Source: Acidobacteriota bacterium (GTDB taxonomy: Bacteria; Acidobacteriota; Terriglobia; UBA7540). Taken from it: 12,160 nucleotides of DNA. Numbering within the stretch: the first letter of the stretch is position 1; each line of letters starts with the position of its first letter. The DNA lies in contig PLWR01000631.1 in NCBI GenBank assembly GCA_003165615.1, positions 1 through 12,160 of the forward strand. The letters run 5' to 3'. The position numbers and the translations under genes were made by a program. The notes under the pieces are model-generated. The model was given only the letters and a program-made list of their open reading frames with translations, searched no databases and was not told where the DNA came from. Below are positions 2,741 through 9,630 of this stretch, piece by piece.

Positions 2741-3508
2741 ATGACTTTCCCCCATGCCATCCTTCTCTTTGTGGCCGCGGTACTGGCCGGCGCGATGAAT
2801 TCCGTGGCCGGGGGCGGCAGTTTCTTCTCTTTCCCCGCCCTCATTTTTACCGGAGTGCCTCCCATTCCCGCCAATGCCACCAACACCGTGGCAGTATGGC
2901 CGGGCTCGGTGGCAAGCGTCTTCTCCTATTGGAGGCGCTTGCCGAGGTCCCCGCGCATCATGGTCCCGCTGATTACCATCAGCATCATTGGCGGCTGGGT
3001 GGGCGCTTTGGTGCTTCTGCGCACGCCGCAAGCGACTTTCATGAGCCTGGTTCCGTACCTGTTCGGAATCGCCACCCTGCTCTTCGCCTTTGGCAAACGG
3101 CTTACCCGGGCGCTCGGCCACGTGGTCAAGCACAGGGGGCCGCCTTCCTGGCCCACCCTCATTGGCCTCACGATGGTCCAGTTCTTCATTGCCCTTTACG
3201 GAGGCTTTTTTGGCGGCGGCATTGGCATCCTGATGCTGGCCATGCTGGAGATGATTCATATCGAAGATATCCATGCCATGAATGCGGTGAAGACGGTTTT
3301 GGCCACGTCCATCAACGGTGCGGCGGTGGTGACGTTCATCGTCGCCAGGCAAGTGGTGTGGCCGCAGGGGATTCTGATGATCGTCGGAGCCGTGGCCGGA
3401 GGATATGGCGGCGCTCACTATGCGCAGAAACTCGACCCCCGCTGGGTGCGCGCGTCAGTGATCTGCGTGGGCACGGGAATGACGATCTACTTTCTGTGGA
3501 GATACTGA
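2741..3508 (+). CDS. TSUP (TauE/SafE, DUF81) family membrane transporter
   Basis: A 255-residue integral membrane protein with about eight hydrophobic helices, the usual size for the TSUP family, whose members export sulfite, sulfoacetate or related organic/inorganic anions. The two internally repeated family motifs are clear. The first is AGAMNSVAGGGSFFSFPAL (16-34) followed by GVPPIPANATNTVA (38-51). The second is YGGFFGGGIGILML (153-166) followed by MNAVKTVLATSINGAAV (180-196). A third Gly-rich helix, GAVAGGYGGAHYA (216-228), is typical of the C-terminal half. The ATG at 2741 puts the first motif in the first helix, as expected. No Shine-Dalgarno is visible, because the GATC repeat array ends four bases before the ATG. 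No sulfur-metabolism gene is next to it, so the substrate cannot be assigned. Confidence 0.9.
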   Translation: MTFPHAILLFVAAVLAGAMNSVAGGGSFFSFPALIFTGVPPIPANATNTVAVWPGSVASVFSYWRRLPRSPRIMVPLITISIIGGWVGALVLLRTPQATFMSLVPYLFGIATLLFAFGKRLTRALGHVVKHRGPPSWPTLIGLTMVQFFIALYGGFFGGGIGILMLAMLEMIHIEDIHAMNAVKTVLATSINGAAVVTFIVARQVVWPQGILMIVGAVAGGYGGAHYAQKLDPRWVRASVICVGTGMTIYFLWRY

Positions 3509-3514
3509 CGACTC

Positions 3515-3538
3515 GGGATTAGGGATTAGGGGTTGGGG
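3515..3538 (+). repeat. telomere-like G-tract repeat, quadruplex-capable
   Basis: Four G-runs of three or four (3515-3517, 3522-3524, 3529-3532, 3535-3538) are separated by ATTA, ATTA and TT. This satisfies the standard G-quadruplex pattern. It begins seven bases after the TSUP stop codon. Confidence 0.7.
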
Positions 3539-3551
3539 ATTCGCGCCTACG

Positions 3552-3581
3552 CCCGCCGAAGGGCTTCGGCCCGCAGGCGGG
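3552..3581. repeat. palindromic intergenic hairpin (REP-like)
   Basis: CCCGCC (3552-3557) pairs with GGCGGG (3576-3581), and an overlapping inner palindrome GCCGAAG (3555-3561) pairs with CTTCGGC (3564-3570). It lies downstream of the TSUP gene. No T-run follows, so it is not a typical intrinsic terminator; it may still protect or shape the 3' end of the transcript. Confidence 0.6.
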
Positions 3582-3585
3582 ACTC

Positions 3586-3624
3586 GGGAAACGGGGCGCG
3601 GGACTGGGGATTCGGGGCTTAGGG
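3586..3624 (+). repeat. second G-tract cluster
   Basis: Six runs of three or four G (3586-3588, 3593-3596, 3600-3602, 3606-3609, 3614-3617, 3622-3624) are spaced by three or four bases. Together with the G-runs at 3515-3538 and the hairpin between them this makes a 110-base repeat block before the RiPP locus. Confidence 0.65.
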
Positions 3625-3691
3625 TTATAAATCAATCCGGGCCGGTAGCCATCTCGGACAGTGTAGTTTGAGGGTCACTCCAAGTTTTGAA

Positions 3692-3720
3692 TTGACACAG
3701 CCTCAAAAATATGAGAAATC
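3692..3720 (+). promoter_or_regulatory. candidate promoter of the RiPP precursor gene
   Basis: A perfect TTGACA at 3692-3697 lies 62 bases before the precursor ATG, in an AT-rich stretch. The region 16-18 bases downstream (3714-3720) has only a poor -10 match, so either the promoter needs an activator or another sigma factor is used. Confidence 0.35.
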
Positions 3721-3759
3721 TTCAAGAAAGTTCAGCCAAAATAAGTGCCAGGAGGCTAT

Positions 3760-4044
3760 ATGCCAAATAAAAGTTGGCCAAGTCCGTCCGATGTCGACCT
3801 CGTTCTCGCCAAGGTGAGGTCCGATGAGTCTTTCAAGGCGCTGCTTTTGAGCGATGCCAATGCCGCTTTGCATGGAATTGGCATTGAGGTTCCGAGTGGT
3901 TTGACCGTCAAAATCCATGAAAACACCTCCTCTTGCGTCAATTACATCCTGCCGCCAAAGTCAGGAGCAACCGAGCTGAGCGATGCAATGCTTGAGTCCG
4001 TTACCGGTGGGGGTAATACCATTATCCACGGCATTCAAAAGTAA
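3760..4044 (+). CDS. NHLP-type (nitrile hydratase-like leader) RiPP precursor peptide
   Basis: A 94-residue precursor of a ribosomally made, modified peptide. Residues 10-66 match the nitrile-hydratase-alpha-like leader layout: a helical part (DVDLVLAKVRSDESFKALLL), ANAALHGIGIEVPSGL, then VKIHENTSSCVNYILPP. ELSDAMLESVTGG (72-84) follows, which is the usual end of such leaders at a double-glycine protease site. Cleavage after G84 would release a 10-residue core, GNTIIHGIQK (nine residues if after G85). The core has no Cys, Ser, Asp or Glu; possible modification sites are Thr, His, Asn, Gln and the C-terminal Lys94. The start was placed at ATG 3760 because AGGAGG (3750-3755) lies four bases upstream; a GTG at 3745 in the same frame would overlap that site. 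The gene is followed by a GNAT gene on the same strand, the likely maturase. No exporter/protease gene is seen in the window. Confidence 0.88.
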   Translation: MPNKSWPSPSDVDLVLAKVRSDESFKALLLSDANAALHGIGIEVPSGLTVKIHENTSSCVNYILPPKSGATELSDAMLESVTGGGNTIIHGIQK

Positions 4045-4078
4045 CAGTCGCCAGTGATTTCGCATAGTTTGGAGCTGC

Positions 4079-4134
4079 GGCGACGTCGCCTTGCACGACC
4101 TGTCTGGGATTTCCGGGAAGGTGGAGCGACGTCG
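4079..4134. repeat. duplicated GCGACGTCG motif between precursor and GNAT genes
   Basis: The perfect 12-base palindrome GGCGACGTCGCC (4079-4090) is followed by a second GCGACGTCG (4126-4134), 46 bases away. Both lie in the 178-base gap between the precursor stop and the proposed GNAT start. They could be a regulator site or mRNA structure. Nothing more can be said from sequence. Confidence 0.4.
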
Positions 4135-4222
4135 TCCTGCGGCTTGTTCCTGCATTTACTCTTTTGCCTGGCCGGGTCATCCATACGCCCTTCCCCGTGT
4201 TGCACGCGTTGGGCATGGCGTA

Positions 4223-5224
4223 ATGACTCCCGCAACCCGGACATTGCCGCAAGCCGTGTTATGGCGTGAGCCCTCTATAGATGGCAGCCAATGGGCACTA
4301 TCTGCATCGTCAAGTTCCCCGATGAGCTTTATTATTGAACGGCTCTCCGCCCCCACGACGGCTTTCTCTGGCCTGACGTTTCCCCGCTATCGTCCTCTCG
4401 TGGAATCAAGCAAAGAGAACACCTTGGCCATTGCCGCTTCTTCGGATTTGGTCCCGGTGGGGCTTGCCCTCGCGGAGTTCGATAAGAAGGAGGCTGTGGC
4501 CCGGCTCCTGTCACTTGCTGTCGATGCCAGCCATCGGCGGCGTGGCCTGGGAGGCGGGTTGTTGCGCGCGTGCGAGGCGGCGCTGGCGGATTTGGGATGC
4601 AGAGAGGTGGCTGCCTACCATTCCAGCCGTCTGCCCTGCGCAACCGCCTTTGCCGCCACGCTGCGGCGGTGTGGGTGGCCGCCTCCGCAGGTCTGCCAGG
4701 TTCGGTCCGCCGGCCGGTGCGGGGTGCTGGCCGCCGCCATCGCGGAATGGCCAGGGGTGCGGCGCTTGCTGCGCAACCCCGATTTCACTTTCATGCCGTG
4801 GACGACGCTAACGCCAACGGACGAAACGGCCATCGACCGGCTGTGTCAGGAACCCGCCTGCAGCCAATACCTGTCCCCCAAAACCTGGACGGGTCAAATC
4901 GAGCCTCGCATCAGCACTGTCATCCGGCAAGGGGAAGAGTTGGTAGGCTGGGTCCTGGTGAGGCTCGATCCTGAATACTCCGAACCGACCCTGCACTGCG
5001 AAGCTGCCTACATCCGGCATGACCTCTGGCGCTCGGGCCTTCTGGTGGCAGGCTATCTTCACGTCTACAGAGCGGCGGCCAGTTGTTTTGGAAATGACAC
5101 CATCCTACACTTCCACACCAGCCCGCGCTTGCCCGGCATGATGGCGCTCACCCGCCGCCGGTTCGCTCCAGTCTCCCTTTGGGTCGACGATTGGCTGGAA
5201 TCCCGGAAAAGACTGGGCGGGTAG
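4223..5224 (+). CDS. tandem GNAT-fold acyltransferase, likely RiPP maturase
   Basis: A 333-residue cytoplasmic enzyme. The N-terminal half holds a recognisable GNAT domain: strand LLSLAVDASH (95-104), the acyl-CoA/pantetheine loop RRRGLG (105-110, the R-x-x-G-x-G motif A), helix GGLLRACEAALADLG, strand REVAAYH (127-133) and the late-GNAT helix ATAFAATLRRCGW (140-152). The C-terminal half (about 186-325) repeats the order weakly (LVGWVLVRLD, LHCEAAYIRHDLWRSGLLVAGYL, TILHFHT, ALTRRRFAPVSLW) without a good motif A, so it looks like a second, degenerate GNAT fold. GNAT enzymes transfer acyl groups from acyl-CoA or acyl-ACP to amines. Beside an NHLP precursor with a core Lys, N-acylation of that peptide is the natural hypothesis. 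The open frame reaches back to TTG 4091; ATG 4223 was preferred because the upstream 44 residues look non-coding, and ATG 4322 is a further alternative. None has a strong Shine-Dalgarno. Confidence 0.8.
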   Translation: MTPATRTLPQAVLWREPSIDGSQWALSASSSSPMSFIIERLSAPTTAFSGLTFPRYRPLVESSKENTLAIAASSDLVPVGLALAEFDKKEAVARLLSLAVDASHRRRGLGGGLLRACEAALADLGCREVAAYHSSRLPCATAFAATLRRCGWPPPQVCQVRSAGRCGVLAAAIAEWPGVRRLLRNPDFTFMPWTTLTPTDETAIDRLCQEPACSQYLSPKTWTGQIEPRISTVIRQGEELVGWVLVRLDPEYSEPTLHCEAAYIRHDLWRSGLLVAGYLHVYRAAASCFGNDTILHFHTSPRLPGMMALTRRRFAPVSLWVDDWLESRKRLGG

Positions 5225-5245
5225 CCACGCAGCAGGTAGCAGATA

Positions 5246-5341
5246 AGCGACGGCAAGGCCATTCGCAATTTCCCTCGCCCAAAGCTCGGGAACACGTAAG
5301 CCTTCCCGCTCAACGACGGCTAAAACGGCGTCGGCATAAGC
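5246..5341 (-). pseudogene. fragment of a VapC-like PIN-domain toxin gene
   Basis: About 32 codons on the minus strand read AYADAVLAVVEREGLRVPEL followed by WAREIANGLAVA. This matches the pattern around the second conserved acidic residue of VapC PIN domains (x-VPxLWxxEVANxL). The N-terminal Asp motif of PIN domains is missing: upstream the frame runs into the palindromic element at 5352-5421. Downstream it runs into sequence antisense to the GNAT gene, so it is a remnant, not an active ribonuclease. No VapB antitoxin gene is visible. The assignment rests on a short motif by eye. Confidence 0.5.
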
Positions 5342-5350
5342 GCCGGCTGG

Positions 5351-5382
5351 CGCAGACCTGTACTCCAAGGTCTGCGGCTTTT
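5351..5382 (+). terminator. hairpin plus short T-run downstream of GNAT gene
   Basis: CGCAGACCT (5351-5359) pairs perfectly with AGGTCTGCG (5368-5376), a 9-bp stem with an 8-base loop, followed by GCTTTT. It lies 126 bases after the GNAT stop, between convergent genes, so it may end the RiPP transcript. It is also the left part of a small palindromic repeat, which may be its true origin. Confidence 0.45.
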
Positions 5383-5421
5383 CTCGATTGGGGCCGAGGG
5401 TCGCGGACAAAACAGGTCTGC
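5352..5421. mobile_element. 70-bp palindromic element with 10-bp terminal inverted repeats
   Basis: GCAGACCTGT (5352-5361) and ACAGGTCTGC (5412-5421) are perfect inverted repeats at the ends of a 70-base segment, and a third inner copy of the arm occurs at 5368-5376. The size, terminal symmetry and intergenic location resemble REP-like or MITE-like non-autonomous elements. No clear target-site duplication was found, and only one copy is in the window. Confidence 0.5.
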
Positions 5422-5473
5422 TACGCCTGCTCCAAAGGACCCACCACAGCCATTCGCAACCTGCCGGCGGAGG

Positions 5474-8400
5474 TCAGTGTTTGCTGGCCGAAGTCGAGGT
5501 TGTTGTCACCGTCAGGCTGATGGCCTGAGTCTTTGTAACTCCTCTGCCGGTAGCCGTTACTGTCAGCGAAATGGCGCCCGCCGCTTTGGTGGAGGAGGAG
5601 GCCAGCGTTAAGGTGCTAGTGCCACGGCCCGGCGCGGCAATGCTGGTTGGGGAAAAGCTCGCCGTGACTCCGCTCGGAACTCCACTGATTGACAACGCCA
5701 CGGCGGAGTTGAATCCTGTCCCCCCCGCGGCGGTCACGGTTATTGGCACTGATCCGCCGCGCGCTACATTGGCGCTCGTGACACTTAATGATAGCGTGAA
5801 GGCGCCGGAGCGCGTCAGGCTGAGGGTTTGAGTCTTGGTCACGCCTCCGCCCGCAGCCGTTACGGTCAAGGTGGAGGTTCCCGCTACGGCTGTGGAAGCC
5901 GCTGTCAGAGTTAAAGTGCTCCTCCCACTACCGGGCGATGCAATACTGGTGGGCGCAAAGCTTGCCGTGACTCCCGCCGGAAGTCCAGTGATTGACAACG
6001 CCACTGCCGAGCTGAATCCGTTCACCCCGGCGGTGGTCAACGTGATGGGTGTCGAACCACCCGGTAGCACACTCGCGCTGGTAGCGCTTGGCGTCAATGT
6101 GAAGCTGGAGGACGGCGCGACTGCCAGGGTGATGGTTTGAGTTTGCGTGATACTCCCGCTCGTACCCGTCACGCCCAGGACGGAGGTTCCCGCTGCCACC
6201 CCCGAGGCCACCGATATCTTTAAGGTGCTACTGTTACTCCCCGACGCGATGCTGGTGGGCGAAAAACTCGTGGTGATTCCCGTCGGAAGTCCACTGATGG
6301 ACAACGCCACGGCCGAGTTGAATCCATTTAACCTTGTGATTGTCAGTGTGAAAGATGTCGAGGCGCCCACGTTCACACTGGCGCCCGTTGGGCTCGGCGA
6401 CAGCGTAAAAGTGGCGGCCGTGACTGTCACGGTGAAGGCCAGCGTGCGCTTGAATCCGCCACCTGTTCCGCTAACGGTCATCGGGTAAATGCCTGCTGCG
6501 GCGTTGGTGGCGGCGGTCACCGTCATGGTCACCGGGGCGGCGGTGCTCAGGGTGGGGGAGGTGAAGGTCACCGTCACGCCGCTGGGAGCTCCGGCCGCCA
6601 ACAGCGTGACCGGAGAATTGAATCCGCCTTGGGCAGTCATCGTCAGGTTTGCCGTGTGCGGGCTACCCGGCGAAACGGTCAGGCTGGAGGAATTTGAGGC
6701 CAGGGCGAAGTTCGAGGCGCGGCTGTTGTTCCAGCTATTGACCAGCAGGAAGGCATTCACCGAACCGAGTCCGGTGGTCATATCGTACCCAGGACCTGCG
6801 CTATAGCCCGTGACTCCGGGCACGCTATTGTTGCCGCTGGTGATGTCGTGGAAGACTGCCGGGCCCCCGGCGGCTTGCTGACTGGCCAGCGTATACAGAT
6901 TAGGGTTGACGTTTCCCCACGGTGTCCCGGCATTCTGGAGCACAAGGGCCATCACGCTCGCCAAAGACGGAGTCGCCGCAGATGTGCCGGCGATATAATA
7001 GGACGAACCTTGGAATTGGATGACGTAGGCATCGTGAATCGCAGACGAGGCCGCGATATCGGGAACCATGCGCATATTACCAGCGGGAACTCCGGGTCCG
7101 GACTGCCAACCGGGCCTCGGGTAGACGGTGCTTAACCCGCCTCCCGATGCGTCAAGTGCTCCGGCCCATGAGCTTTCATTCCAGGTAAGTTCCGGAATGT
7201 AGCTGAGCGCGGAACTCATGCCCGCGCCATTGGTTGCCGACCAATAAACGCCTGGATTGGTATTGTCGTTGAATTCCGTGCCTCCCACGCAGGTGCTGTT
7301 GGGAGTGGAGCAAATGGCGTTGACGGCTTTTCCCTGGGTGGCGACCTGCTCCGTGGAGGCATCGCAACCTGCGGCGCCACTGTCGCCCGAGGCTACAAAT
7401 ACGGATTGTCCTTGTGACGCGGCTTGGGCCCACAGGCTGCCCCAGAGACTTTGCCCCCCAGCGGAGAGCGTGTTCTCGCAGTGGAGATAACTCACCGACA
7501 CGATGGGCGCTACTTTATTGGTCACGGCGTACTGGGCGGCCAGCACCACCCCGTCGGTTGCACCCGATGCCGCACTCACGAATTTGATGGAGGCGTTTTT
7601 GGCGATCGCACCCGCCCACTCGACATCGAGAGCGGACTCCGCCTCGTCCTGACAATCCGGCATTCCGGGATTGACGCCGTTAACGAAAATCTTCTGCGGG
7701 ATGTTTGCCGGCAGCCCGGCGCTCGAGCGGAAGGTCTCCACGTCGGTCAAGGCAACGTCTGTGCGCCCCACCACCGCGATGCTCTGTCCGCTGCCATCCA
7801 GCCCTTGGCTGTAGAGCGGGGTGACGTCGTAGATCGTGTCCCAGTCCTTCGGCATCAGAAGGGTGACGCCATTGGGGAGAGTGTAGGCAGGCACCGTCTC
7901 ATGTGCCGGCGCGCTGTGAAAATCGTGAAGCGAGACAATTCCTTTCACCACTTCCGCCAAAGCTTGGGGAATTTCGGGGTCAGTGGCATTGGCAAAGTGG
8001 ATTTCTCCTTTGACGGAGTATTTTCGCATCTGTGTGTGAAAGGTTGTCTCCACCTGCCCGGCCGTACCACTAAATACGATGGAACGGTGCGAGGACGGGA
8101 CTTCGTCCACCTTCATTCCGTGCATCTCCAACCAGCCCGTGACTTGGTAAATGTCGTTTTGGGAAATCCCGAAATGCTCGCCGAAGGTCTCGGGAGTGAG
8201 CCATTGATGATAATAAGGTGAATTTGGATCCTGCTGGGCCCGGATTAACTCCTCCAGCGCCTCATCCTGTGTGGGGTCTGGGCGCAGGACAAGTACCATC
8301 CTCGCCATGGGCTGGTCGGGCAGAACCGCACCGGCCATATTCGCGGGCCTTGCCAGCGGGTGCACATTCCCTGTAAGCACGACCCGTTGGGTATCGTCGA

Positions 8401-8539
8401 TTTGCAGTGACACCTTGTCGATAGGGCCGACGCTGAGGGGGTCGCTAAGTCGATCGAGGTTCTGCGCGGTCTGTGACCAGGCGGCGAGAGATGACAGGAG
8501 GATGAAAAGAGTCAGAAAAGCAGGCTTTCTTCCGTGCAT
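5474..8539 (-). CDS. secreted S53 (sedolisin/pro-kumamolisin) peptidase with Ig-like repeats
   Basis: A 1021-residue exported serine-carboxyl protease; the family works at acidic pH and cuts extracellular proteins. There is a signal peptide at residues 1-25 (hydrophobic LTLFILLSSLAAW). The S53 activation prodomain covers about 77-210, and the catalytic domain about 225-600. Catalytic residues are in place: E301 and D305 in ESALDVEWAGAIA, the oxyanion Asp D386 in ASGDSG, and the nucleophile S520 in GTSAATP. The C-terminal Ca-site elements FHDITSG (D565) and GPGYDMTTGLG (D586) are present. Four Ser/Thr/Val-rich repeats of ~100 residues follow (609-707, 711-807, 813-909, 914-1011), each with a (L/V)PxGVTxSFxPTSIA-like core; they look like bacterial Ig-like folds for surface or substrate attachment. 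The start ATG 8537-8539 has GAGG a few bases upstream. It is monocistronic and convergent with the GNAT gene. Such repeat-tailed S53 enzymes are frequent in Acidobacteriota. Confidence 0.95.
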   Translation of the reverse strand: MHGRKPAFLTLFILLSSLAAWSQTAQNLDRLSDPLSVGPIDKVSLQIDDTQRVVLTGNVHPLARPANMAGAVLPDQPMARMVLVLRPDPTQDEALEELIRAQQDPNSPYYHQWLTPETFGEHFGISQNDIYQVTGWLEMHGMKVDEVPSSHRSIVFSGTAGQVETTFHTQMRKYSVKGEIHFANATDPEIPQALAEVVKGIVSLHDFHSAPAHETVPAYTLPNGVTLLMPKDWDTIYDVTPLYSQGLDGSGQSIAVVGRTDVALTDVETFRSSAGLPANIPQKIFVNGVNPGMPDCQDEAESALDVEWAGAIAKNASIKFVSAASGATDGVVLAAQYAVTNKVAPIVSVSYLHCENTLSAGGQSLWGSLWAQAASQGQSVFVASGDSGAAGCDASTEQVATQGKAVNAICSTPNSTCVGGTEFNDNTNPGVYWSATNGAGMSSALSYIPELTWNESSWAGALDASGGGLSTVYPRPGWQSGPGVPAGNMRMVPDIAASSAIHDAYVIQFQGSSYYIAGTSAATPSLASVMALVLQNAGTPWGNVNPNLYTLASQQAAGGPAVFHDITSGNNSVPGVTGYSAGPGYDMTTGLGSVNAFLLVNSWNNSRASNFALASNSSSLTVSPGSPHTANLTMTAQGGFNSPVTLLAAGAPSGVTVTFTSPTLSTAAPVTMTVTAATNAAAGIYPMTVSGTGGGFKRTLAFTVTVTAATFTLSPSPTGASVNVGASTSFTLTITRLNGFNSAVALSISGLPTGITTSFSPTSIASGSNSSTLKISVASGVAAGTSVLGVTGTSGSITQTQTITLAVAPSSSFTLTPSATSASVLPGGSTPITLTTAGVNGFSSAVALSITGLPAGVTASFAPTSIASPGSGRSTLTLTAASTAVAGTSTLTVTAAGGGVTKTQTLSLTRSGAFTLSLSVTSANVARGGSVPITVTAAGGTGFNSAVALSISGVPSGVTASFSPTSIAAPGRGTSTLTLASSSTKAAGAISLTVTATGRGVTKTQAISLTVTTTSTSASKH
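5507..6715 (-). repeat. four tandem ~300-bp coding repeats (Ig-like domains)
   Basis: The C-terminal part of the S53 gene repeats with a period near 100 codons. The last three copies share stretches such as GACAACGCCAC (read on the plus strand near 5690, 5994 and 6300), so they are recognisable at DNA level as well as in protein. This supports duplication within the gene and makes repeat number prone to change by recombination. Confidence 0.85.
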
Positions 8540-8835
8540 GGGGGCCTCAGGACAACATTAGCGTTTTCGAATAAATAATACAATATTAGATTAGATTGAC
8601 TTGTGGGCTACCAGCAATAGTACGTTAGTCCTGTTTTGCCCAGTAAACTGGCCTTTTGCATTAAAGTTTTCACATGATTGATGCGAAACTCGGTTGGGCG
8701 AAAGGGCGGCCTTCACGCGACGGCACTCTTATTTCTGATTCTTGGGTGTTTCCGCCTGTGACCCAGGCCGGGGGATAACCGTGAATGGTTATTCGTGCTT
8801 CATAATTCCGACTTCATAATCCATAATTGTTTCGC
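8540..8835. other. divergent intergenic region, S53 gene to ABC ATPase gene
   Basis: No gene is evident. The part next to the S53 gene (8560-8600) is AT-rich and probably holds its promoter, but no convincing -35/-10 pair could be chosen. Near the right end CTTCATAAT is repeated at 8798-8806 and 8812-8820, and a third CATAAT occurs at 8822-8827. These CATAAT hexamers resemble -10 boxes very close to the ATG at 8836, which has no Shine-Dalgarno. Confidence 0.45.
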
Positions 8836-9630
8836 ATGACAAACGAGCTCACATCCCAGCCGGCGGAAACTCCCTACATCGAATTCCACCACGTCTATAA
8901 GGCGTTTGATGACCAGCCTGTTCTGGAAGATGTGACCTTTGACGTGCGGCGCGGCGAGATGGTGGCGGTGCTGGGGCGCAGCGGCGTGGGCAAGAGCGTA
9001 ACGCTCAAACACATTCTGGGGTTTCTGAAGCCCGACGCGGGGCAGGTGTATGTGGCGGGCCGCGAGGTTTCCGCCCTGACTGAAGAAGAACTGATGGACG
9101 TCCGCCGGCGCGTGACCATGGTCTTTCAATCGGGCGCGCTTTTCGATTCCCTTACGGTCGGCGAAAATGTTGCCTACCCCCTGCGCGAGCGCGCCCTGCG
9201 CGGGCTGGTTGTGAGCGAGGGCGACATTCAGCAACGCGTTGACAAGCTGCTGACGCAGGTGGAACTGGAAGGTATGCGTGACCTGGCGCCTTCTGACCTG
9301 AGCACCGGCATGAAACGGGCCGTGGCCATAGCGCGCGCGCTGGCGGCGGAGCCGGAGTGCATCCTCTACGATGAGCCCACCACCATGGTTGACCCACTGA
9401 TGGCGCAGACCCTCAGCGATCTGATCCTGAAGGTTAAGCGCACCACGGGTCTTACCTCTATCGTGGTGACGCACGACGTAAAGCTGGCGCGCAAGCTGGC
9501 GGACCGCGTGGTGTTCCTGGTGGACGGCCGCGTGACGTTCTTTGGCACCATCCCGGAGATGGACCGATCCACCGTGCCCATGGTTCAGGACTTCATTCAG
9601 CTCGATGAGGTTTCTTTCCTGCCTTCATGA
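8836..9630 (+). CDS. ABC transporter ATP-binding protein, MlaF/Mkl-like
   Basis: A 264-residue cytoplasmic ATPase of the family that powers MlaFEDB/Mce-type phospholipid or sterol transport across the envelope. Visible motifs: Walker A GRSGVGKS (47-54), Q-loop VFQSGALFDSLTVGENVAYPLRE (Q98; wording typical of MlaF), signature LSTGMKR (155-161), Walker B CILYDEP (175-181), D-loop region MVDP (184-187) and H-loop THD (H213). The signature has Thr instead of the usual first Gly (LSGGM/LSGGQ). The start is ATG 8836; a TTG three codons upstream is less likely. It stands alone: no MlaE permease or MlaD/MCE substrate-binding gene lies on either side in the window, so partners must be encoded elsewhere. 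The exact substrate is unknown. Confidence 0.88.
   Translation: MTNELTSQPAETPYIEFHHVYKAFDDQPVLEDVTFDVRRGEMVAVLGRSGVGKSVTLKHILGFLKPDAGQVYVAGREVSALTEEELMDVRRRVTMVFQSGALFDSLTVGENVAYPLRERALRGLVVSEGDIQQRVDKLLTQVELEGMRDLAPSDLSTGMKRAVAIARALAAEPECILYDEPTTMVDPLMAQTLSDLILKVKRTTGLTSIVVTHDVKLARKLADRVVFLVDGRVTFFGTIPEMDRSTVPMVQDFIQLDEVSFLPS

What the first reader, a model, noticed from the sequence alone, without database searches (positions are those of the whole stretch)
3760..5224. Minimal two-gene RiPP locus: NHLP precursor with Lys-terminated core plus tandem GNAT, a possible ribosomal lipopeptide
Seen: an NHLP-type leader ending SVTGG, a core of only about ten residues (GNTIIHGIQK) with a single Lys at its very end, and the next gene encoding a GNAT-fold enzyme with an intact acyl-CoA loop (RRRGLG). 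Known: in selidamides, GNAT-like maturases attach fatty acyl groups to Lys or Orn side chains of NHLP/Nif11-type precursors. Inference: this locus makes an N-acylated or fatty-acylated short peptide in a likely Acidobacteriota host. The absence of any other modifying enzyme, protease or exporter gene nearby makes it unusually small.
Basis: partly seen in the sequence, partly recalled or inferred. Interest (0 to 1): 0.88.

Follow-up and report, generated by a model that had tools for sequence, protein, structure and literature searches.

The report
Two-gene RiPP with Lys-acylating GNAT
A bacterium, probably an acidobacterium, carries a tiny peptide gene next to a two-domain acyltransferase gene that most likely attaches an acyl group, perhaps a fatty acid, to the last lysine of the peptide; this would make it a very small relative of the known ribosomal lipopeptides called selidamides.

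Summary
Window 3760-4044 encodes a 94-aa precursor with a leader_NHLP match (58.2 bits, cut-off 50.9) and a core GNTIIHGIQK. The next gene (4322-5224) encodes a tandem GNAT with a P-loop only in its N-terminal half. The GNAT does not look like housekeeping: 32 of 37 related genes examined lie within 2 kb of an NHLP- or Nif11-like precursor, and with curated models 13 of 23 precursors in 16 GNAT-bearing genomes do. Core Lys is enriched: 41 of 44 such precursors have one (Lys 8.4% of core letters, 3.0% of leader letters). The three misses come from one genome. The only close precursor relative also ends in Lys. A solitary precursor+GNAT pair is not unique: 9 of 29 relative loci show no exporter or radical SAM match. 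All ten Azospirillum-family genomes checked have a C39 peptidase domain, so processing in trans is possible. Best reading: a selidamide-like RiPP whose tandem GNAT acylates the terminal Lys. Acyl length, direct comparison with NpuN/PhaN, and the product are untested. New variant of a known kind, moderate interest.

The parts
3760..4044 (+). NHLP-type RiPP precursor, 94 aa; leader to about residue 84 (SVTGG), core GNTIIHGIQK with a C-terminal Lys
   Evidence: TIGR03793 58.2 bits over cut-off; Pfam NHase_alpha 23.8 bits, below its cut-off; relative P0025, 65% identical, also ends in Lys; RBS seen
4012..4041 (+). core region GNTIIHGIQK (10 residues after the first GG; 9 if cut after GGG), only Lys at 4039-4041
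   Evidence: sequence; cleavage site inferred from the GG motif, not tested
4322..5224 (+). tandem-GNAT acyltransferase, 300 aa (an in-frame ATG at 4223 and a TTG at 4091 are less likely starts)
   Evidence: Acetyltransf_1 51.4 bits; AlphaFold2 mean pLDDT 93.9 with two GNAT-like halves; best Foldseek matches include tandem GNATs 2wpw, 5kf1, 6wqb
4535..4552 (+). P-loop RRRGLG ([Q/R]xxGx[G/A]) of the N-terminal GNAT half; no such motif at the corresponding place in the C-terminal half
   Evidence: sequence and alignment; motif definition from PMC13060382 section 11
4045..4321 (+). 277-nt intergenic gap with a promoter-like match at its end (4307-4335) and two weak hairpins
   Evidence: (region 3500-5480: 2 promoter-like sites against 0.6 in shuffles, 3 terminator-like against 2.2); no function claimed

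Best explanation
The two genes form a minimal RiPP unit. The NHLP leader of the precursor is recognised by the tandem GNAT, which binds an acyl-CoA (or acyl-ACP) through its N-terminal P-loop half and transfers the acyl group to the side-chain amine of the C-terminal Lys of the short core. The leader is then cut after the GG motif, probably by a C39 peptidase-exporter encoded elsewhere in the genome, releasing an acylated peptide of about 9-10 residues. Shown: both genes, their adjacency, the leader family, the tandem GNAT fold (model), linkage of this GNAT family to NHLP/Nif11-like precursors, and enrichment of Lys in the linked cores. Inferred: acylation itself, Lys as acceptor in this peptide, the acyl group (fatty acyl by analogy with selidamides), cleavage and export in trans.
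For: NHLP leader over the curated cut-off. In a tree of 58 GNATs the window protein and five relatives form a clade (99/91) joined at 100/98 to a clade with Azospirillum and rhizobial GNATs that lie next to RiPP-precursor-like genes (midpoint root; contexts). 32 of 37 GNAT genes examined lie within 2 kb of a precursor found with profiles built here. With curated models, 13 of 23 over-cut-off NHLP/Nif11 matches in 16 GNAT-bearing genomes lie within 2 kb of a GNAT (my count against 38, 47 and 52). Core Lys in 41 of 44 GNAT-adjacent precursors; Lys is 8.4% of core letters against 3.0% of leader letters of the same genes; 38 of 41 distinct cores against 18.9 (sd 3.1) expected. P0025 (diverged core TLNTYNPKK) keeps a terminal Lys. 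NpuN, shown by others to acylate Lys1 of a Nif11-led core, is likewise a tandem GNAT with a clear P-loop only in its N-terminal half (PMC13060382 sections 9 and 11).
Against: Three of the 44 precursors, all in one genome (L037), have no core Lys although they lie within 1.1 kb of a GNAT of this family. The cores counted are related, so the enrichment is not a count of independent events. Lys also occurs in precursors with no GNAT in the locus: 5 of 8 in G004 (L033, L111), whose cores are mostly longer and have only about 2% Lys. Many relative precursors match the curated leader models only weakly (6 of 20 re-scanned pass a cut-off, 12 are weaker, 2 have no NHLP/Nif11 match). Residues proposed as catalytic in NpuN (Asp182, His265) have no obvious counterparts in the window GNAT by my reading. 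The selidamide targets I could read about are Lys1 or ornithine, not a C-terminal Lys. No exporter or leader peptidase was recognised in the window. Nothing here measures the acyl group.
Confidence: 0.6

Rival explanations
1. [quoted passage not shown]
For: GNATs that lipidate N-termini exist (microvionin, goadvionins, lipoavitides; PMC13060382 introduction passage). Cores without Lys next to a GNAT exist (L037).
Against: Lys is enriched in the cores linked to this GNAT family. Acting on a free N-terminus would need cleavage first, and no exporter-peptidase was found in the window or in 9 of 29 relative loci.
Confidence: 0.13
2. The GNAT transfers acetyl or another short acyl group, as modification or self-protection, so the product is not a lipopeptide.
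For: Several solved relatives found by fold (5kf1 glucosamine N-acetyltransferase, VipF, mycothiol synthase) use acetyl-CoA (titles). Sequence alone does not give chain length.
Against: The characterised GNATs of NHLP/Nif11 systems that I could read about attach C10-C16 chains.
Confidence: 0.17
3. The GNAT-fold enzyme adds an amino acid from aminoacyl-tRNA to the peptide (amide ligation) rather than an acyl from CoA.
For: Foldseek also lists aminoacyl-tRNA-dependent peptide synthases (9wqy, 9wqx, 9wqw; ranks 27, 32, 46) among the 50 rows shown.
Against: The best-ranked acyl-CoA enzymes fit better (TM 0.55-0.62 against 0.41), though some others do not; the CoA P-loop RRRGLG is intact.
Confidence: 0.03
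4. Chance neighbours: an orphan NHLP protein beside an unrelated acetyltransferase, without functional link.
For: 277-nt gap and no clear RBS before the GNAT; gene order differs between lineages (GNAT first in L001, L006).
Against: The same GNAT family is precursor-linked in 32 of 37 genes examined, and the window GNAT falls inside that family.
Confidence: 0.05

Closest known systems
Nostolysamide GNAT NpuN and precursor NpuA (Nostoc punctiforme; selidamide-type)
   Same: RiPP precursor plus tandem GNAT with a clear P-loop only in the N-terminal half; Lys side chain acylated in npu; some related clusters lack a lanthionine synthetase (PMC13060382 sections 9 and 11)
   Different: npu has a Nif11 leader, Lys at core position 1, a lanthionine synthetase and a core of at least 25 residues (passages); the window has an NHLP leader, a 9-10-residue core, Lys at the last position and no other maturase in view. 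NpuN's own sequence was not reached.
Phaeornamide (pha) and kamptornamide, selidamides
   Same: pha: NHLP precursor and a GNAT maturase (PMC9505594 passages)
   Different: acyl on (hydroxy)ornithine made by a peptide arginase, and in pha also methyllanthionine, a hydroxylase and transporters; none of these was recognised in the window
Azospirillum precursor+GNAT loci (L001, L004, L006) and solitary pairs (L036, L067, L068)
   Same: homologous GNAT (window GNAT 37-38% identical to L001/L004/L006), precursor beside it, short Lys-bearing core; the solitary pairs have Lys-rich C-terminal tails
   Different: L001/L004/L006 precursors match leader_NHLP only weakly (17.8-26.5 bits, cut-off 50.9) and their loci also carry a C39 peptidase and an ABC protein; cores differ; I know of no characterisation
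Radical SAM loci with GNAT (L011, L038, L039)
   Same: GNAT of the wider family near a Nif11-type precursor (over cut-off); Lys is the first residue after GG
   Different: long hydrophobic cores, matches to radical SAM epimerase and methyltransferase; separate GNAT clade

Membership tests
NHLP-type (proteusin-type) RiPP precursor | nitrile-hydratase-like leader over the curated cut-off | tested here: met
   TIGR03793 58.2 bits, cut-off 50.9
NHLP-type (proteusin-type) RiPP precursor | GG-type cleavage motif before a variable core | tested here: met
   SVTGG/GNTIIHGIQK; leader conserved and core diverged in P0025; cleavage itself not tested
Selidamides | GNAT maturase encoded with the precursor | tested here: met
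   GNAT gene at window 4322-5224; that it is the maturase is inferred
Selidamides | tandem GNAT with a P-loop in the N-terminal half, as reported for NpuN | tested here: met
   against PMC13060382 section 11
Selidamides | GNAT groups in a tree with characterised maturases NpuN, PhaN or the kamptornamide GNAT | not tested
   their sequences were not reached; cyanobacterial GNATs were: homologous over 279 columns (hhalign 99.9, no shared sequence) but a separate clade
Selidamides | Asp182 and His265 proposed for NpuN | tested here: inconclusive
   no obvious counterparts in the window GNAT, but placed only by cyanobacterial proxies (none of the proteins held had both at those exact numbers) and only proposed from a model
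Selidamides | Lys or Orn in the core as acceptor | tested here: met
   one Lys, last residue; 41 of 44 linked relatives have core Lys, three do not
Selidamides | fatty acyl group on the side-chain amine of the product | not testable with these tools
   needs co-expression and mass spectrometry
Lanthipeptide class II | lanthionine synthetase gene and core Cys | tested here: not met
   core has no Cys; no such gene among the nine window ORFs scanned against Pfam

The most novel reading that the evidence does not exclude
Solitary NHLP-precursor + tandem-GNAT pairs are a distinct, recurring class of one-enzyme RiPPs: acylation of a Lys at or near the C-terminus of a tiny core is the only modification, and leader removal and export are done in trans by C39 exporters shared with other clusters. 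The window would be a probable acidobacterial case, with homologous systems in Azospirillum, where precursor and GNAT can even lie on different contigs (G456, G460).
Probability: 0.35. Interest if true: 0.65.

Novelty: new variant of a known kind. Interest (0 to 1): 0.5.

Why it matters
If true, ribosomal lipopeptides can be made with one enzyme and a ten-residue core, an easy system for engineering and for learning how tandem GNATs choose their acyl chain and their Lys. It would also mean that clusters of this kind are missed by searches that demand a lanthionine synthetase, radical SAM enzyme or exporter nearby.

Tried and rejected
Own-genome searches failed because no genome is held for the window. 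A single-sequence genome-contig scan found nothing; an alignment scan gave five loci. The viral-contig scan found no relative. Rfam gave no match in the window at gathering thresholds. The original selidamide paper (PNAS, DOI recalled) is not held, so I rely on passages of PMC9505594, PMC13060382 (passages; sections 9 and 11) and PMC12703449 (passages). An attempt to reach NpuN through a search with an alignment holding cyanobacterial GNATs (120 of 205 hits listed) gave many cyanobacterial GNATs, none identifiable as NpuN. A first profile comparison shared one sequence (P0020) between both sides; it was repeated without shared sequences, and only that is used. Considered and dropped: the S53 protease as leader peptidase (secreted acid protease family by recall; opposite strand), and the ABC ATPase at 8827-9630 as exporter (no C39 or membrane domain found).

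Limits of the counts. The precursor profiles were built from seeds found near GNATs, which favours linkage; the curated-model count (13 of 23) is independent of them but comes from genomes chosen for having the GNAT. Of 20 GNAT-adjacent precursors re-scanned with NCBIfam (of 44), 6 pass the NHLP or Nif11 cut-off, 12 match more weakly and 2 (L062, L064:8245-8601) match neither. In one search at most 5, at most 27 first-look candidates per genome were scored, so 4 of 385 and 12 of 82 are lower bounds. Of 11 places, three weak ones (E above 1e-8) were not examined; all places were. Of 15 plasmid records were fetched. L009 (GNAT fused behind a TIGR03032 domain) was left out of the linkage count; L006 and L059 are the same sequence in the compared genes. 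The solitary-pair count rests on tblastn with exporter and radical SAM proteins; lanthionine synthetases were not probed in the relatives. One search counts 44 precursors within 2 kb; left out from the list were L010 (4.3 kb away), one L037 precursor 5.4 kb away (also without Lys), and those with no GNAT in the locus: L033 (no Lys), L109 and L110 (4 of 4 with Lys, in G460 and G456, whose matching GNAT lies on another contig) and L111 (4 found; all 7 read, 5 with Lys).

Full report
WHAT IS THERE. Window 3760-4044 (+) encodes MPNKSWPSP...ELSDAMLESVTGG|GNTIIHGIQK, 94 aa, with an AGGAGG box before the ATG. It matches NCBIfam TIGR03793 leader_NHLP at 58.2 bits (cut-off 50.9). The next gene on the same strand, after 277 nt, encodes a GNAT. 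The open frame begins further upstream, but the protein database starts it at 4322 (P0003, 300 aa), and the upstream stretch lacks the gene's third-position GC. An AlphaFold2 model (18 sequences, mean pLDDT 93.9) shows two GNAT-like halves; top PDB matches include tandem GNATs: the clavulanic-acid tandem GNAT 2wpw, glucosamine N-acetyltransferase 5kf1 and VipF 6wqb. The CoA P-loop RRRGLG is in the first half; the second half has no such motif at the corresponding place. This is the layout reported for the selidamide-type enzyme NpuN (PMC13060382 section 11).

SURROUNDINGS. The other main window genes are GroES (Cpn10), a 388-aa protein without Pfam match, a TauE/SafE transporter, an S53 pro-kumamolisin (opposite strand), an ABC ATPase, a pseudouridine synthase and an iron alcohol dehydrogenase. 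tblastn with C39-peptidase, NHLP-exporter and radical SAM proteins of relatives finds only the ABC ATPase, weakly (28.6%). No genome is held, so an exporter further away cannot be excluded. The S53 protease's best plasmid hits are Granulicella (394 and 308 bits; best other row listed 124, with 12 of 43 records listed), which fits an acidobacterial host.

RELATIVES OF THE GNAT. One search gave 22 proteins including the window's own: five near full-length ones without organism names at 44-65% identity (P0004-P0007, P0009), a fragment (P0008), then Azospirillum doebereinerae at 39%. Named loci came from genome contigs and from 7 of 15 plasmid records with a match. Of 385 alphaproteobacterial genomes sampled, 4 have a match at E 1e-20 or better; of 82 in the Azospirillum family, 12; both are lower bounds because few candidates per genome were scored. 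In all I examined 37 GNAT genes besides the window's. Thirty-two lie within 2 kb of an NHLP- or Nif11-like precursor found with profiles built here. One more (L010) is 4.3 kb away in a stretch with IS5 transposase genes, and for four none was found (L029, L071, L072, L074; their surroundings were not annotated further). Because those profiles were seeded from such loci, I checked with curated models: 10 NHLP and 13 Nif11 matches pass the cut-off in 16 GNAT-bearing genomes, and 13 of these 23 are within 2 kb of a GNAT by my count. Of 20 adjacent precursors re-scanned, 6 pass a cut-off (L005, L011, L036, L038, L039, L073), 12 match NHLP or Nif11 more weakly, among them the Azospirillum precursors of L001, L004, L006 and L058, and 2 match neither. 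In two genomes (G456, G460) the precursors (L109, L110) and GNATs of the matching clade (L072, L074) lie on different contigs.

TREE. In a tree of 58 GNATs (midpoint root) the window protein and five relatives form a clade (99/91). It joins at 100/98 a clade with Azospirillum GNATs and Agrobacterium, Allorhizobium, Shinella and other rhizobial GNATs, all those with a read locus lying beside a precursor-like gene. Another clade (100/100, nine GNATs) goes with cores that mostly read TSFSAFILYGP..P.KPK; two of the nine (L072, L074) have their precursors elsewhere in the genome. GNATs of cyanobacteria and of radical SAM loci form separate clades. Profile comparison of the window family with eight cyanobacterial GNATs, no sequence shared, gives probability 99.9 over 279 columns.

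LYS IN THE CORES. Among 44 precursors within 2 kb of a GNAT, 41 have at least one Lys after the GG-type motif (38 of 41 distinct cores), against 18.9 (sd 3.1) expected from the Lys frequency of their own leaders (core 8.4%, leader 3.0%; Arg 4.8% in both). The sequences are related, so this is enrichment, not 38 independent events. The three misses (PTQCGNDGL, NPVSCNNDGA, VPINCNDQNIRA) are in one genome, L037, with C39-ABC exporters; a fourth such precursor, 5.4 kb from the GNAT and not counted, also lacks Lys. Precursors with no GNAT in the fetched locus are a small control: in G004 (L033 and the seven of L111) 5 of 8 have a Lys, but their cores are mostly longer and only about 2% of the letters are Lys; the four in G456 and G460 all have Lys, and those genomes hold the matching GNAT on another contig. 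So presence of Lys alone discriminates little; its density does. The single close relative of the window precursor, P0025, keeps the leader and a terminal Lys (TLNTYNPKK) while most of the core has changed. In the radical SAM loci L011, L038 and L039 Lys is the first core residue, as in nostolysamide.

IS THE LOCUS UNUSUALLY SMALL? Twenty-nine relative loci hold GNAT and precursor within 2 kb. In nine (L034, L036, L062, L063, L066-L069, L073) no exporter or radical SAM match was found in 15-16 kb; lanthionine synthetases were not probed there. Two genes next to such pairs, checked by Pfam, are an adenylosuccinate lyase and an EamA transporter; the other neighbours were not scanned. All 10 Azospirillum-family genomes checked have a C39 peptidase domain somewhere; G413, whose only detected pair is solitary, has one, on another contig. 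C39 domains are common (8 of 14 control genomes), so this shows only that export in trans is possible.

HOW IT MOST LIKELY WORKS. Leader binding brings the short core to the tandem GNAT, which transfers an acyl group from CoA (or ACP) to the terminal Lys; a C39 exporter encoded elsewhere removes the leader. This chain is inference from anatomy and relatives. Fatty rather than acetyl is by analogy: NpuN adds C16 chains to Lys1 (PMC13060382 section 9); phaeornamide and kamptornamide carry 3-hydroxydecanoyl and dodecanoyl on (hydroxy)ornithine.

COMPARISON AND NOVELTY. Works like a selidamide system: likely. Member of the selidamides: the chemical defining feature is untested, and the characterised enzymes could not be placed in the tree. 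That GNAT clusters without a lanthionine synthetase exist is already stated in PMC13060382, which adds that most encode an ABC transporter. The solitary pair with a Lys at the C-terminus is the part I did not see described in what I searched (listings only, apart from the passages and sections named; only open-licence papers are held).

Noticed in passing
L037:6864-8121 (G384): Three Nif11-like precursors next to a GNAT of this family have tiny cores with one Cys and Asn/Asp but no Lys (PTQCGNDGL, NPVSCNNDGA, VPINCNDQNIRA), with C39-ABC exporters nearby; what the GNAT acts on there is unclear.
   Followed up: partly
L035, L036, L067-L070, L073, L109, L110 and L007:10495-10815: A recurring NHLP-type core, mostly TSFSAFILYGPxxxPxKPK(K), linked to its own GNAT clade, often as a solitary pair and in two genomes unlinked from the GNAT.
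   Followed up: partly
L011:5847-10758, L038, L039 (and L010, with IS5 transposases between): Radical SAM epimerase + GNAT + radical SAM methyltransferase loci whose Nif11-type precursors have Lys as the first residue after GG, followed by long hydrophobic (Ala/Val/Thr-rich) cores: candidate Lys1-acylated epimerised peptides.
   Followed up: no
L009:6735-8846 (Nostoc sp. ATCC 53789 plasmid): A GNAT of this family lies inside one 2.1-kb gene annotated as TIGR03032 family protein, on a plasmid typed as conjugative: apparently a fusion.
   Followed up: no
L008:6849-8648 (Ensifer plasmid): A GNAT with an extra N-terminal region of about 280 aa, beside several Nif11-like precursors with Lys at or near the C-terminus.
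   Followed up: no
window 5474-8539 (-): Large S53 pro-kumamolisin protease with a long repetitive C-terminal part, closest to Granulicella among the plasmid records listed.
   Followed up: partly
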